In this document: piece by piece, positions 310 to 60,531 of the stretch
Layout: the number at the start of each line of letters is the position of its first letter
Numbering within the stretch: the stretch's first letter is position 1
Origin: an uncultured Monoglobus sp.
Lineage (GTDB): Bacteria > Bacillota > Clostridia > Monoglobales > Monoglobaceae
NCBI GenBank assembly: GCA_947630505.1
Contig: CANRHV010000009.1
Location: forward strand, 1 to 64,000
Reading direction: 5' to 3'
DNA length: 64,000 bases
The notes under the pieces: model-generated
The model's input: only the letters and a program-made list of their open reading frames with translations
What the model was told of the DNA's origin: nothing
Databases searched by the model: none
Program-made: the position numbers and the translations under genes

Positions 310-344
310 CTAGTCCCTAGTACCTAATCACTAGTACCTATGTT
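310..344 (+). repeat. Heptad array 1 (five CTAnnnn units)
   Basis: Five consecutive 7-bp units each begin with CTA, and the last is CTATGTT. It is followed at once by a composite hairpin repeat. Confidence 0.85.
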
Positions 345-532
345 AACCCCTCTCCGTCAGGCTTCGCCTGACACCTCTCCCCAAGGGGCGAGGCTTTCGG
401 GCGGCCGAGGTCGTCCGCCCCTACGGCGTTTTGCACACTTTGGTTGTAGGGCGGCATACCCACATGCCGCCGGCCGGATGTGGGCATCCGGCCCTACGGA
501 TTTGGTGCGAGGCATACGGGCTGCCGCCCGTC
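345..532 (+). repeat. Composite intergenic repeat, copy 1
   Basis: Modules in order: a hairpin around CTCTCCCCAAGGGGCGAG (about 374-393), a second module with self-complementary ends GGGCGG and CCGCCC followed by CTACGG (about 409-427), and a hairpin with arms GCCGGATG and CATCCGGC. Related modules recur in at least nine other gaps of this window. No coding role is apparent. Confidence 0.75.
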
Positions 533-567
533 CTAGTCCCTAGGTCCTATTTCCTAGTCTCTACGTT
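533..567 (+). repeat. Heptad array 2 (five CTAnnnn units)
   Basis: Five exact 7-bp units, each starting CTA and ending with CTACGTT. A fragment of the GGGCGGAT module follows at 575-600. Confidence 0.85.
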
Positions 568-712: not shown

Positions 713-747
713 CTAATTACTATTTGCTAATCGCTAATCGCTATGTT
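713..747 (+). repeat. Heptad array 3 (five CTAnnnn units)
   Basis: Five exact 7-bp units starting CTA, the third and fourth identical (CTAATCG), the last CTATGTT. A composite repeat begins directly after it. Confidence 0.85.
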
Positions 748-904: not shown

Positions 905-939
905 GTAGTCTCTAGTCCCTATTTCCTAGTCACTACGTT
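905..939 (+). repeat. Heptad array 4, overlapping the DUF3737 gene end
   Basis: Five 7-bp units; the first is GTAGTCT rather than CTAnnnn, the last CTACGTT. The array overlaps the 3' end of the leftward DUF3737 gene and supplies its last six codons and its TAG stop. Confidence 0.8.
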
Positions 940-1773
940 GCCCTTAGCCCAGGGCTCGTCGAAGATTATTTCGCCTATGGTGTCGGCTGTGACGGTGCCG
1001 CTCAGCGGGTTCTTGACGCTTGTGATCTCTCCGCGCACATCGGCGGTCACCTCGCTCTTTTCAAACGACAGGTCGCAGTCCCGCATCTCGCAGTCCTCAA
1101 GGATAAGGCCTTTGGCGTAGCACAGCGGCTGGGTGCCGCTTATTTTGCAGCGCACGAGGCGCAGGTTCTCGCTGTACCACGCGAGATACTCGCCGTCTAT
1201 CACGCTGTCGTACACCGTGACGTTTTTGCTGTGCCAGAACGCGTCCTTCGTGTTGAAATTCGAGTTCCTGATCACCGCGTTTTCCACATACTGAAACGAG
1301 TATTTGCCCGTCATCGTCAGGTTGTCGATCTCCATATCGCAGCTGCGCAGAAACGGGTACTCGGAATTTAACTCGCAGTCCGAGATACTCAGGCCGCGGC
1401 AAAACCAGCCGAACTCGACCGAGTCTATCTCGCAGCTTTTGAGCGTTGAGCCGTCGCACTCGCGCAGGGCCTTGATGCCGCCCAGCTTTGAGTTTGTTAT
1501 GTATATATTTTTATCGTACCAGAGCGCCGCGCGGCAGGTGTCCGCCATGGAGCAGTTTTCGATCTCGGCGTTTGTCACGTGCCAGAGCGGATAGCGCAGC
1601 CTAAAATCACAGCCGCGCGCGACAAGGTTCCCGCACTCCTTGAGCGCCGATTCCCCGTCCGCGGGGCCGCTGAATTTTGTATCCGCGATCTCCGCGTTAT
1701 GCAGTCCGTACAAGGCGCGCTCCTCGTCAAAGGTTTTGCCGTTTATTCGGGTAATTTCTCCGTCAAAGCGCAT
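919..1773 (-). CDS. DUF3737 family right-handed beta-helix protein
   Basis: A 284-residue cytoplasmic protein, with no signal peptide, built of short repeats in which hydrophobic, Asn, Cys and Ser positions recur about every 20 residues. This is the pattern of a pentapeptide-like or right-handed beta-helix fold, and the whole sequence fits the widespread DUF3737 family of Firmicutes, whose function is unknown. I start at ATG 1773 because GAAAGGAG lies eight bases upstream; a GTG two codons earlier would sit too close to that site. The gene follows the CDF transporter by 74 bases and may share its transcript. Its last six codons and TAG stop lie inside heptad array 4, so the native C-terminus may have been replaced. 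Confidence 0.8.
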   Translation of the reverse strand: MRFDGEITRINGKTFDEERALYGLHNAEIADTKFSGPADGESALKECGNLVARGCDFRLRYPLWHVTNAEIENCSMADTCRAALWYDKNIYITNSKLGGIKALRECDGSTLKSCEIDSVEFGWFCRGLSISDCELNSEYPFLRSCDMEIDNLTMTGKYSFQYVENAVIRNSNFNTKDAFWHSKNVTVYDSVIDGEYLAWYSENLRLVRCKISGTQPLCYAKGLILEDCEMRDCDLSFEKSEVTADVRGEITSVKNPLSGTVTADTIGEIIFDEPWAKGNVVTRK

Positions 1774-1847
1774 AAGCACAACTCCTTTCTGTAAATTATA
1801 TAATCAAGTCGTTAAAATATGAAGTTTATGTGATTTAAGCCGCCGCT

Positions 1848-2783: not shown

Positions 2784-2818
2784 AACATAGGTACTAGGGA
2801 TTAGTAACTAGGTACTAG
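2784..2818 (-). repeat. Heptad array 5 (minus orientation)
   Basis: On the minus strand five exact CTAnnnn units end in CTATGTT. It points away from array 6 at 2867-2901, and a CGCGGGGA...TCTCCGCG module lies between the two. Confidence 0.85.
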
Positions 2819-2866
2819 GCATATGACGCGGGGAAATGCCAATGATTTTTGCCAAATTCTCTCCGC

Positions 2867-2901
2867 GTATTCGCTATTCGCTAATTACTAATCACTATGT
2901 T
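2867..2901 (+). repeat. Heptad array 6 (five units)
   Basis: Units are GTATTCG, CTATTCG, CTAATTA, CTAATCA and CTATGTT. As in array 4 the first unit begins with G and the array is preceded by TCTCCGC. Confidence 0.85.
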
Positions 2902-31739: not shown

Positions 31740-32037
31740 CGGGCGGATTGCCGCGCCCGTTTTTGCCTCGCCCCTTGGGGAGAGGTGGATTTCCGCCAAA
31801 GGCGGAAAGACGGAGAGGGGTTTCCCATGCGATTTGGAACACAAACCCCTCTCAGTCTGCGGACAAGCCGCAGCCGGCTCTCCCCAAGGGGCGAGCCTAG
31901 TCCCTAGTACCTATTTCCTAGTCTCTACGTTGGCGGCTCTTCCCAAGAGGAGAGCCTGACGGGCGGCCGGGGTCGTCCGCCCCTACGGCATTTTGATAAG
32001 AGACAAGAGAGGCGGATGATATCCGCCCCTCTTTTAT
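31740..32037. repeat. Large composite intergenic repeat, copy 4
   Basis: This gene-free stretch between mscL and the gene ending at 32039 holds two copies of the CTCTCCCCAAGGGG hairpin in opposite orientation (31766-31785 and 31877-31896), heptad array 7, a further CTCTTCCCAAGAGGAGAG hairpin, the GGGCGGCC...CCGCCCCTACGG module, and a final GAGGCGGAT...ATCCGCCCCTC hairpin with TTTTA that may act as a terminator. Confidence 0.75.
31897..31931 (+). repeat. Heptad array 7 (five CTAnnnn units)
   Basis: Five exact 7-bp units ending CTACGTT, embedded between two hairpin modules of the composite repeat. Confidence 0.85.
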
Positions 32038-35309: not shown

Positions 35310-36410
35310 ATGAGCGGAATAAAAAAGATCGGAGTTATGACCGCCGGCGGCGACTGTCCCGGACTGAACGCGGTGATCAGAGCGGTCGTTAAGACCGCTA
35401 TACAGGAATACGGCCTTGAGGTCGTGGGAATAAAACACGGGTACCGCGGACTTTATCTGGGCGGAGACGAGTTTGTGCCCCTCTGCCTGCACGACGTTTC
35501 GGGCATTATCTCAAGAGGCGGAACGATACTTTACAGTTCCAACAAAGACAACCTGTTTGACTACACCTATGTCGACGAGCACGGCCGGCAGCAGCGCGGC
35601 GACGTTTCCGACAAAGGCGTTGAGAATCTCGAAAAGGCGGGGATCGACGCCATGGTCATAATCGGCGGCGACGGAACTTTGACCTCAGCCAGAGACTTTT
35701 CCCGCAAGGGCGTCAAGATAATCGGCGTGCCCAAGACGATTGACAACGACTTGTCCTCGACCGACACCACATTCGGATTTGACACGGCGGTCGCCACGGC
35801 CACCGAGTCCATAGACCGTCTAAGGACCACCGCCGAATCCCACAGCAGGATAATCGTCGTTGAGGTAATGGGAAGATACGCGGGATTTATCGCCATAGCG
35901 TCGGCTCTCGCGGGCGGTGCGGACGCGGCTCTGATACCCGAGATACCATATGACATAAACAAGGTCGCGGAGGCCGTAAAAGCGAACAGGGCTCGCGGCA
36001 AAAACTTCGCTCTGGTCGTTGTGGCGGAGGGCGCGAAGCCCAAGGACGGCGATATCGTTATATCAAAGATCGTCGAGAACAGCCCCGACCCGATCAGGCT
36101 TGGCGGCATAGGCGAGGTTATCGCGGGACAGCTTGAGCATCTGGCGGGTCTTGAGTGCCGCGCCACGATACTGGGCCACACACAGCGCGGAGGCACGCCC
36201 ACAGCCAACGACAGGATATTGTCCACCCGATACGGAGCGTACGCGGTGGAGCTGCTCATGAACGGCAAATTCGGCAACATGGTGACGCTGAACGGCGCCG
36301 ATCTGGGCTATGCCTCGCTCGAAAACGTGATAGGCAAAAACAAGGCAGTTGAAAAAGACGGCTATTGGGTAAAGGCCGCCAGAGCGGTGCATATGTGCTT
36401 GGGGGATTAA
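35310..36410 (+). CDS. pfkA: 6-phosphofructokinase (group III type)
   Basis: 366 residues. It phosphorylates fructose 6-phosphate in glycolysis. TAGGDCPGLNAVIR binds the phosphoryl donor; GGDGT (119-123) keeps the Gly typical of ATP users, while PKTIDND (141-147) has the Lys found in PPi-dependent and mixed group III enzymes in place of the ATP-type Gly. Later blocks (VEVMGRYAGFIA, ILGHTQRGGTPTANDR) are standard. By established family rules this combination predicts ATP use. GGAGG lies eight bases before the ATG. A TATAAT box at 35216-35221 is the likely -10; its -35 is weak. The 3' end is repeated downstream in decayed form. Confidence 0.96.
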   Translation: MSGIKKIGVMTAGGDCPGLNAVIRAVVKTAIQEYGLEVVGIKHGYRGLYLGGDEFVPLCLHDVSGIISRGGTILYSSNKDNLFDYTYVDEHGRQQRGDVSDKGVENLEKAGIDAMVIIGGDGTLTSARDFSRKGVKIIGVPKTIDNDLSSTDTTFGFDTAVATATESIDRLRTTAESHSRIIVVEVMGRYAGFIAIASALAGGADAALIPEIPYDINKVAEAVKANRARGKNFALVVVAEGAKPKDGDIVISKIVENSPDPIRLGGIGEVIAGQLEHLAGLECRATILGHTQRGGTPTANDRILSTRYGAYAVELLMNGKFGNMVTLNGADLGYASLENVIGKNKAVEKDGYWVKAARAVHMCLGD

Positions 36411-36632
36411 TTTTCATATTTTTTAACAAAAATATGAAAATTGGGAAAAACCGCCGGAGTGGTACACATGTGTTTAATTTTCTTAATTTTAAAAAATTTG
36501 AAAATTGGGGAAAGTAGCCGGAGCGGTTCGCATGTGTTTAACTTTCTTAATTTTAAAAAATTTGAAAATTGGGAAAAGCTAACTGTTCACATGCGCTTGC
36601 GAATAATTTTAAAAAATTTTAAAAAAAGTGTT
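36365..36632 (+). repeat. Tandem 64-bp repeat derived from the 3' end of pfkA
   Basis: The last codons of pfkA plus the following AT-rich hairpin (unit 36365-36439) are followed by three imperfect copies at 36440-36503, 36504-36567 and 36568-about 36632. Each begins ATTGGG, carries GCCGGAG-GGT-ACATGTGT-like remnants of the terminal pfkA codons, and ends in an AATTTTC...GAAAATT hairpin. The copies hold stops and are not part of a gene. The pfkA-rpmE gap is otherwise empty apart from the rpmE promoter. Confidence 0.8.
36409..36442 (+). terminator. Perfect AT-rich hairpin at the pfkA stop
   Basis: AATTTTCATATTTTT (36409-36423) pairs with AAAAATATGAAAATT (36428-36442) around TAAC: 15 perfect base pairs, starting in the stop codon. 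It could end the pfkA transcript or protect its 3' end, though it lacks GC pairs and a T-run. Confidence 0.5.
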
Positions 36633-39697: not shown

Positions 39698-39732
39698 CTA
39701 TTCGCTATTCGCTAATATCTAATCACTACGTT
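39698..39732 (+). repeat. Heptad array 8 (five CTAnnnn units)
   Basis: Five exact 7-bp units ending CTACGTT; the ribosome binding site TTAGGAG of the next gene begins one base later, so the array replaces the usual upstream region of that gene. Confidence 0.85.
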
Positions 39733-59299: not shown

Positions 59300-59320
59300 A
59301 ACGTAGCGAATAGCGATTAG
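59300..59320 (-). repeat. Partial heptad array (three units, minus)
   Basis: On the minus strand CTAATCG, CTATTCG and CTACGTT. The stop codon of the duplicated tail (59317-59319) lies in the first unit. Confidence 0.75.
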
Positions 59321-59523
59321 GAGCGCTGCGACTGCGACATATTCGCCGCGTTTCTCAGCATTTCCTCGCTCACGCCCATGTTCTTTAAGTTCGCTATCAT
59401 CGCGTCTATGCCTTCCATTCGGCCGCGCGTTTCGCCTTCTTTTATGCCTTCTTTGCGGGCGTCTCTCATCATTGCTTTTTGTATCTGCTCATCATCATAT
59501 AGTGAAAACATTATATCATGCAC
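59317..59523 (-). pseudogene. Duplicated C-terminal fragment of the Rpn-family nuclease
   Basis: 68 codons almost identical to the last part of the gene at 59558-60463: HDIMFSLYDDEQIQKAMMRD through GVSEEMLRNAANMSQSQRS. It lacks the whole nuclease domain and 20 residues of the repeated EG-rich segment. The homology begins exactly where heptad array 9 ends (CTATGTT then GAGGTGCATG), so the array marks the junction. Translation from GTG 59523 is possible but a function is unlikely. Confidence 0.85.
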
Positions 59524-59526
59524 CTC

Positions 59527-59561
59527 AACATAGTGATTAGGAATTAGCGAATAGCGATTAG
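59527..59561 (-). repeat. Heptad array 9 (five units, minus)
   Basis: On the minus strand five exact CTAnnnn units ending CTATGTT. The TAA stop of the full-length nuclease gene lies in its first unit, and its last unit abuts the duplicated tail. Confidence 0.85.
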
Positions 59562-60463
59562 GATCGCTGTGACTGCGACATATTCGCCGCGCTTCGCAGC
59601 ATTTCCTCGCTCACACCCATGTTCTTTAAATTCGCTATCATCGCGTCTATGCCTTCCATTCGGCCGCGCATTTCACCTTCTTTTATGCCTTCTATGCGGC
59701 CTTCCATGCGGCCTTCCATGCGGCCTCTTGTTTCGCCCTCTTTTATGCCTTCTTTGCGGGCGTCTCTCATCATTGCTTTTTGTATCTGCTCATCATCATA
59801 TAGTGAAAACATTATATCATGCACCTCGCTTTCGTGGTTTGACAGGTATTCTTTTAGGATATTCCTGTCTTTGCATATTTTTATCGTTTCGTCTATCGCC
59901 TTTTTCGTTCTGCCGTGGGTTTTTACACGGTCGTTTAATATATGCGTGAACATCACGTATTGGTTTATTATGTCGCCTTCGCGGCTCTCGGTGATCACTT
60001 TGACTCTTACGTCCAATGCCGTCTCGTCTCCGCCGAAATATTCCTCGCTCAGGCTTATCTCTTTTTCCTCTACCTTTTTGTCGCCCGTGTAGATCACATA
60101 AAGCTCAGGCTTCGGTATCTCAAGCTTTTTTGAGCTGTAGATGTTAAGCTCCTCTTTTTCGATATAGTCCTGATATGTCTGCACAAGATACATAAGGCCG
60201 CGAATTATTATATTTACCGTCCATGCGGACTGCGCCTCTACAAGCACTATCAGCCTTTTGTCCATCATAAAGCCCAGGTCGTTATACAGGCTGTCGGTGA
60301 GTATGTTTTTGAGGGTGACTATCTCGATCATGTCCTCGGTCACATAATCAGCCTCGGGGTGCAGGGCTTTATACAGCTCCACTATATATTTTGTATCCTG
60401 AAACAAACTGGTAAACACGCTGTCTTTGACGTTTCGCTTTAGTATCTTTTTATCCGTCGGCAT
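59558..60463 (-). CDS. Rpn-family (PD-(D/E)XK) recombination-promoting nuclease/putative transposase
   Basis: 301 residues. The N-terminal nuclease region (NVKDSVFTSLFQDTKYIVEL, then DLGFMMDKRLIVLVEAQSAW, with the E-x-Q of the PD-(D/E)XK core, and ELYVIYTGDK) matches the Rpn/transposase_31 family, DNA endonucleases first described as promoting recombination. The C-terminus holds tandem (R/K)(M/I)EG and EGIKEGE repeats and a helical end ANLKNMGVSEEML. I start at ATG 60463 because GAGGTG lies six bases upstream; a GTG three codons earlier overlaps that site. The gene end lies in a heptad array and the tail is duplicated downstream. Confidence 0.9.
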   Translation of the reverse strand: MPTDKKILKRNVKDSVFTSLFQDTKYIVELYKALHPEADYVTEDMIEIVTLKNILTDSLYNDLGFMMDKRLIVLVEAQSAWTVNIIIRGLMYLVQTYQDYIEKEELNIYSSKKLEIPKPELYVIYTGDKKVEEKEISLSEEYFGGDETALDVRVKVITESREGDIINQYVMFTHILNDRVKTHGRTKKAIDETIKICKDRNILKEYLSNHESEVHDIMFSLYDDEQIQKAMMRDARKEGIKEGETRGRMEGRMEGRIEGIKEGEMRGRMEGIDAMIANLKNMGVSEEMLRSAANMSQSQRS

Positions 60464-60531
60464 TTTAAGCACCTCATAATTTTTGATATACTTATTATAT
60501 CCTATTTTTGCGAAACAGTCAATATATTTTT

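What the first reader, a model, noticed from the sequence alone, without database searches (positions are those of the whole stretch)
905..939. Heptad arrays are stop cassettes in all frames and supply gene ends
Because the period (7) is not a multiple of 3, the TAG present on the reverse strand of each CTA unit falls in all three frames within 21 bp. Forward CTAG and CTAA units also give TAG and TAA in most frames. The array ends real genes: it supplies the last six codons and stop of the DUF3737 gene here, and the stop of the nuclease gene at 59558. The element may have spread because it safely terminates translation wherever it lands, or it may be selected as an insulator.
Basis: partly seen in the sequence, partly recalled or inferred. 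Interest (0 to 1): 0.7.

Follow-up and report, generated by a model that had tools for sequence, protein, structure and literature searches.

The report
Five-heptad end repeats flanking intergenic modules
A 35-base repeat made of five 7-base units is scattered by the hundred between genes of gut bacteria of the genus Monoglobus; it does end some genes, but the stop codons look like a side effect of a repeat that marks the outer ends of small, frequently swapped intergenic DNA modules.

Summary
The array at 905-939 is real. It encodes the last six codons and stop of the DUF3737 gene (NVVTRK*). About 160 copies lie in this 2.7-Mb genome, and 11 of 12 same-genus genomes carry them (0-1 control matches). 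It is not a free tandem repeat: most copies have five heptads, (CTANTCN)4-CTAYGTT, with position-specific fourth bases.

The complement of the CTA strand always stops in three frames, which follows from CTA plus period 7. All six frames are stopped in only 13/59 and 21/126 arrays; shuffling the fourth bases gives about 29 and 49. Non-stop positions are as conserved as TAG.

'Supplies gene ends' is half right. DUF1934 and GH3 genes, and probably DUF3737, got their tails from arrays that replaced native ones. The Rpn stop is native, and other genes keep the same C-terminus without an array.

The outer end (AACRTAG/CTAYGTT) is the boundary: pairs face outward 50:4, outer ends abut gene ends and Shine-Dalgarno sites alike, and orthologous arrays keep outer flanks while inner units and modules are swapped. 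Best reading: terminal repeat of MITE/REPIN-like modules; stops are a by-product. No transposase was found.

The parts
905..939 (+). heptad array of the finding; outer end CTACGTT at 933-939 runs into the DUF3737 gene
919..1779 (-). DUF3737 gene (PF12541); last six codons and TAG (919-921) inside the array
310..344 (+). heptad array
533..567 (+). heptad array
713..747 (+). heptad array
2784..2818 (-). left array of a complete outward-facing pair (118-bp element 2784-2901), conserved in G004
2867..2901 (+). right array of the same pair (first unit GTATTCG degenerate)
2819..2866 (.). inner module of the pair (GCGGGG...CTCCGC type)
31897..31931 (+). heptad array between hairpin repeats
39698..39732 (+). 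heptad array whose outer end lies directly before a Shine-Dalgarno site and start codon (CTACGTT gttaggagtaaatgtt ATG)
59527..59561 (-). heptad array at the end of the Rpn-like gene; the gene's TAA (59558-59560) lies in its first, inner unit
59558..60472 (-). Rpn-like (recombination-promoting nuclease) gene with 4-residue repeats in its tail
59300..59320 (-). shorter heptad array after the duplicated Rpn tail (about 59317-59520)

Best explanation
The heptad array is the roughly 36-bp outer end (terminal inverted-repeat-like sequence, AACRTAG[N4TAG]4 / [CTAN4]4CTAYGTT) of a genus-specific family of small non-coding intergenic modules, MITE/REPIN-like in organisation. Modules accumulate between genes. 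Their outer ends end up flush against gene 3' ends and ribosome-binding sites because that is as close as insertion is tolerated. Recombination within arrays then swaps the inner units and inner modules while the outer flank stays. A gene that reads into the outer end meets TAG within 21 bp, so arrays sometimes supply its last 0-6 codons and stop. Shown: fixed five-unit form, outward pairing, outer-end boundary, swapping between species, and both native and supplied stops. Inferred: transposition or copying in trans as the way of spread, and recombination as the cause of swapping.
For: Fixed size and position-specific columns, not a VNTR. Adjacent arrays under 150 bp apart: -+ 50, +- 4, ++ 28, -- 20. 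Outer ends abut genes (24 3'-end overlaps, 23 within 30 bp of starts); non-Rpn inner ends do so rarely (8). Precise presence/absence between 93%-identical species: a 227-bp pair sits where G004 reads AACGTT; a 117-bp pair in the own genome sits where G003/G004 read ATAACATGACC. Orthologous arrays with 6.1% diverged flanks: N4 mismatches bimodal, mean 3.54 of 16 against 0.98 expected, TAG 0.78 of 15 against 0.92 expected. In pairs whose inner module is unrelated, N4 mismatch rises inward (0.17.35.27.42), whereas it falls inward where the module is kept (.17.15.12.09.04). The DUF3737 array itself switches after unit 2 between G000 and G009.
Against: No autonomous copy or transposase was found between outward pairs at 0.5-4 kb in 3.2 Mb of sequence, and Y1_Tnp/RAYT is absent from the own and G004 genomes. 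No clear target-site duplication: at most ACGT, which overlaps the repeat. Many arrays stand alone, without a partner. One solo array before an EF-G-family gene is identical in G004 and three further MAG contigs (one gene at 92% identity) and recognisable in G001 (86%), which hints at constraint.
Confidence: 0.62

Rival explanations
1. Translation-stop cassette or insulator: arrays spread or are kept because they stop translation in every frame wherever they land.
For: Complement of the CTA strand always stops in three frames. 24 genes end in outer ends; arrays are never internal to predicted genes. In DUF1934 the third TAG is kept in nine species while the units behind it change. An eroded GH3 array lost its stop and the frame extended.
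Against: All-six-frame stops are rarer than in two shuffle controls. The non-stop T of NTCN and the terminal GTT are as conserved as CTA. TAG integrity is the same in gene-end and other arrays. Outer ends abut start codons as often as stops. Native stops are unchanged in array-free orthologues.
Confidence: 0.08
2. Cis-regulatory DNA or RNA element: arrays are binding sites for a protein contacting CTA every 7 bp, acting in 5' and 3' untranslated regions.
For: 18 non-Rpn arrays lie directly before Shine-Dalgarno sites, e.g. CTACGTT-AGGAGG. Arrays persist at orthologous sites down to about 70-76% nucleotide identity. MacGregor (PMC4679880) proposed such a role for TAACTGA heptamers.
Against: Downstream genes share no function (pantoate ligase, NAD kinase, TrkH, IreB, EF-G family). 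Arrays sit at both gene ends and in hairpin mosaics. Array type and inner sequence switch between close species at one site. No common fold: A-type mean -0.5 kcal/mol.
Confidence: 0.15
3. STRR/VNTR-like tandem repeat produced by replication slippage.
For: Heptad periodicity; a 5-unit versus 2-unit difference at one orthologous site; a few 6-7 unit arrays.
Against: Most arrays have five units with unit-specific bases and an invariant GTT end; outward pairing.
Confidence: 0.05

Closest known systems
TAACTGA heptamer direct repeats of Beggiatoaceae, Cyanobacteria and Bacteroidetes (MacGregor 2015, PMC4679880)
   Same: Period 7, intergenic, over 100 sets per genome, often just before start codons or overlapping gene ends; stop codons in three frames on one strand were already noted there as the reason they end ORFs.
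   Different: Units there are identical and vary in number (two to six, up to 43); here units are degenerate CTANTCN, the number is mostly five, the end is CTAYGTT and arrays pair outward.
Bacterial MITEs with stops in all frames: RUP, 155-bp Correia element (reviewed in PMC2229807), MITEAba12 (PMC6382973)
   Same: Small, non-coding, intergenic, inverted terminal repeats, multi-copy; stops in all frames or in-frame fusions to host genes are known side effects.
   Different: Terminal repeats here are heptad arrays; no target-site duplication and no parent transposase were identified; arrays also occur singly.
REPINs with RAYT (Y1_Tnp) transposases
   Same: Inverted hairpin repeats around a short centre; the array often is that centre.
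   Different: The array itself is not a conserved hairpin and RAYT is missing from the own and G004 genomes.
Rpn genes with downstream rpnS copies (PMC10327210)
   Same: Tail copies after the Rpn-like gene, starting at an internal GTG, with variable 4-residue repeats.
   Different: Here each tail copy is usually separated from the next by a heptad array.

Membership tests
MITE | terminal inverted repeats | tested here: met
   outward pairs 50 versus 4 inward at under 150 bp; but many arrays are solitary
MITE | small, non-coding, dispersed in many copies | tested here: met
   93-118 bp for the tightest pairs; about 160 array matches per genome
MITE | target-site duplication at empty/filled sites | tested here: inconclusive
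   AACGTT and ATAACATGACC sites show precise junctions; only ACGT could be a duplication and it overlaps the repeat
MITE | shares ends with an autonomous element | tested here: inconclusive
   none between outward pairs at 0.5-4 kb in the sampled 3.2 Mb; whole genomes not scanned
REPIN/RAYT | RAYT (Y1_Tnp) gene in the genome | tested here: not met
   PF01797 found in only 2 of 12 same-genus genomes, absent from own and G004
REPIN/RAYT | repeat forms a conserved hairpin | tested here: not met
   A-type arrays do not fold; G-type fold only through CTAG palindromes
VNTR / STRR heptamer repeat | variable number of near-identical units | tested here: not met
   41 of 67 and 102 of 172 arrays have exactly five intact units, most of the rest four (first unit degraded); unit-specific bases
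Six-frame stop cassette | stops in all six frames kept above chance | tested here: not met
   13/59 and 21/126 against shuffle means 28.7 and 49.1
Rpn/RpnS toxin-antitoxin gene (nuclease gene) | Rpn-type nuclease domain by profile | tested here: inconclusive
   no Pfam family at E 0.001 for the window gene; resemblance rests on tail repeats and tail copies

The most novel reading that the evidence does not exclude
The arrays are joints of a genus-wide cassette-exchange system: intergenic regions bounded by heptad arrays are swapped wholesale between loci by recombination inside the arrays, while the outermost units stay with the flanking genes, keep them terminated and give many unrelated proteins a shared C-terminal peptide N-V-x-[IT]-[RS]-[DKE].
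Probability: 0.25. Interest if true: 0.75.

Novelty: new variant of a known kind. Interest (0 to 1): 0.45.

Why it matters
It shows how a dispersed non-coding repeat can rewrite gene ends without being selected for it: unrelated proteins (DUF3737, DUF1934, GH3 and others) acquire the same short C-terminal tail. The arrays are also a clear case of a repeat whose skeleton persists while its variable bases turn over faster than the flanks between species, which makes array-mediated exchange of intergenic modules directly testable. The stop-cassette idea itself has precedents in RUP, Correia, MITEAba12 and TAACTGA repeats.

Tried and rejected
Rfam: no match in the window. RAYT as mover: rejected. 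Autonomous element flanked by arrays: none seen. Conserved hairpin: the finding's own array folds well (z -4.7), but A-type arrays do not and G-type arrays fold no better than same-type column swaps, so this was rejected as a common property. Slippage-type VNTR: rejected on unit number. Many apparent 'empty sites' were paralogous hairpin composites, not orthologous sites, and were not used. Papers on Monoglobus repeats: nothing relevant.

Full report
What is there. The window lies in a genome whose closest named relatives are Monoglobus MAGs, a genus of Monoglobaceae, Clostridia. The pattern CTAN4CTAN4CTAN4CTA occurs 154 times forward and 152 reverse in the own genome against 1 for the reversed control. 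Ending in CTANGTT it occurs 160 times in the own genome, in 10 of 11 other same-genus genomes (9 to 173 copies) and in a sister genus (47); it is absent from G008 (2.8 Mb, 99% complete) and from all order- and class-level relatives sampled. Aligned on GTT, 67 arrays of the own genome and 172 of other MAG loci show five heptads, (CTANTCN)4-CTAYGTT, preceded by C. Fourth bases are position specific: unit 2 G or T, unit 3 A or T, unit 4 A or G, unit 5 C or T. Most arrays fall into a G-type (GGTG, GGAG) or an A-type (ATAA, TTAA).

Test of six-frame stops. On the complement of the CTA strand TAG falls in all three frames in 59/59 and 124/126 distinct arrays, a consequence of CTA at period 7. On the CTA strand all three frames are stopped in only 13/59 and 21/126. 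Shuffling fourth bases across units gives 28.7 (95% range 24-34) and 49.1 (41-57); within columns 20.5 (17-24) and 35.0 (30-40); a uniformly random base 10.6 and 23.0. Stops are therefore not enriched. The T of NTCN, which makes no stop, is 88-100% conserved, like CTA, and GTT is invariant among arrays selected by that end. TAG integrity is alike in gene-end, gene-start and other arrays.

Test of gene ends. With a home-made dicodon gene caller, 16 of 67 arrays in the own sample and 22 of 122 in G004 overlap a stop; none is internal to a gene and one overlaps a start. Random placement would give 5.4 and 16.1 stops, and 5.8 and 16.4 starts. Without Rpn genes the stop counts are 10 and 14, so the excess is seen only in the own genome. 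Convergent gene pairs are favoured (8 against 3.9; 15 against 8.2) and divergent ones avoided (4 against 8.9; 9 against 21.2), as expected for tolerated insertions. All 24 non-Rpn stop overlaps are through the outer end: 2 nt (7 genes, stop TAA shared with the array's AAC), 7 nt (4), 14 nt (3) and 21 nt (10). The 21-nt class gives unrelated proteins a common tail N-V-x-[IT]-[RS]-[DKE]-stop.

Does the array supply the stop? For the Rpn-like gene, no: tails without an array end at the same S-Q-S-Q-R-S-stop, with TAA or TGA followed by other DNA (L151, L209, L210, L215, L216, L231). The gene at own C2:74241 ends TGG-TAA in every same-genus genome in which its end could be aligned, with or without an array. 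The gene at own C10:12471 ends V-I-T-stop with the array (TAG) and in G003/G004 without it (TGA). For GH3, yes: G004, G009 and G011 end ..LIIN-VGTRE*, -VVISD*, -IVIRD*, whereas array-free G002/G006/G010 end ..LLLKLPCVERGK* or near it, and G005 ..LIIDLKY*; in the own genome a truncated array lost the stop and the frame runs on for about 33 residues. For DUF1934, yes: nine array species end TVNVEI[RS][DE]*, array-free G008 ends TVTVRTDSVTESKSEIN*. For DUF3737 all five close orthologues (94-97% identity) carry the array; an array-free homologue at 60% identity ends ..CEIICRK*, of similar length, so replacement there is likely but rests on one distant homologue.

What the array marks. Neighbouring arrays under 150 bp apart are outward-facing 50 times and inward-facing 4 times. 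Outer ends overlap 24 gene 3' ends and lie within 30 bp of 23 gene starts, five of which are Rpn tail copies, often as CTACGTT directly before AGGAGG. Inner ends lie that near only 7 gene 3' ends and 1 start apart from Rpn. In G004 outer flanks are single-copy in 53 of 121 cases, inner flanks in 20 of 120; the own genome shows a weaker difference, 23 and 17 of 67. Many arrays form the centre of two-hairpin composites that also exist with a 22-bp non-heptad centre.

Turnover. Between species with at least 88% identical outer flanks, N4 positions of orthologous arrays differ at 3.54 of 16 sites against 0.98 expected, with a bimodal distribution (0-4 or 6-11; random array pairs 7.6), while TAG differs at 0.78 of 15 against 0.92. 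Where the inner module is unrelated, mismatch rises from the outer unit inward; where it is kept, it falls (22 and 23 pairs, not all independent). In the DUF3737 array G000 and G009 share AACGTAG TGACTAG and then part. This fits exchange with breakpoints inside the arrays. TAG persistence at deeper divergence is partly a selection effect of how arrays were recognised, so purifying selection is not shown.

Gain and loss. Own C10:12354-12470 is a gain: G003 and G004 lack it. At own C2:10243 eight of the genomes have the array and G004 alone reads AACGTT, a precise loss. In both, AACRT remains in the empty site, so a target, a footprint or a 4-bp direct repeat cannot be told apart.

Relation to known things. 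Stops in all frames are recorded for RUP and the 155-bp Correia element (PMC2229807) and MITEAba12 (PMC6382973). MacGregor described TAACTGA heptamers that stop all three frames on one strand and so end ORFs (PMC4679880). The stop-cassette idea is therefore not new; the fixed five-heptad end and its turnover are what stand out. I found no description of them in the papers searched, which is a limited search. Verdict: observation partly confirmed, interpretation partly supported, novelty a new variant of a known kind.

Noticed in passing
window 59300-60472; L198:17763-18712; L208, L210, L211, L223: An Rpn-like gene is multi-copy in 9 of 12 same-genus genomes; its tail, from an internal GTG (GRGGTGCATGAT), is tandemly repeated up to four times, each copy usually ending in a heptad array, like stand-alone rpnS copies. 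Two tail types (MSQSQRS and MTQRPTS) mix within one locus.
   Followed up: partly
window 345-412, 748-804, 31932-31960 and many loci: Two-hairpin composites (GACTGAGAGGGGTT - centre - AACCCCTCTCCGTC) and GGCGGATAATATCCGCC hairpins make up most of the intergenic DNA; the centre is either a heptad array or a 22-bp unrelated sequence.
   Followed up: partly
L241:18509-18560: A solo array before an EF-G-family gene is identical in G004 and three other MAG contigs (gene identity 92-98%) and recognisable in G001 (86%), unlike the fast-switching arrays elsewhere.
   Followed up: no
L401 (GH3 gene of the own genome): A truncated array no longer stops the frame; the protein appears to be extended by about 33 residues beyond NVGTR.
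   Followed up: partly
window 36407-36579: A 64-bp unit repeated 2.7 times, AT-rich with a conserved ACACATGTGT end, unrelated to the heptads.
   Followed up: no
G008: The one finished (single-contig) same-genus genome has no arrays at all, although ten of the other eleven (besides the own) do; a natural control for gene content.
   Followed up: partly
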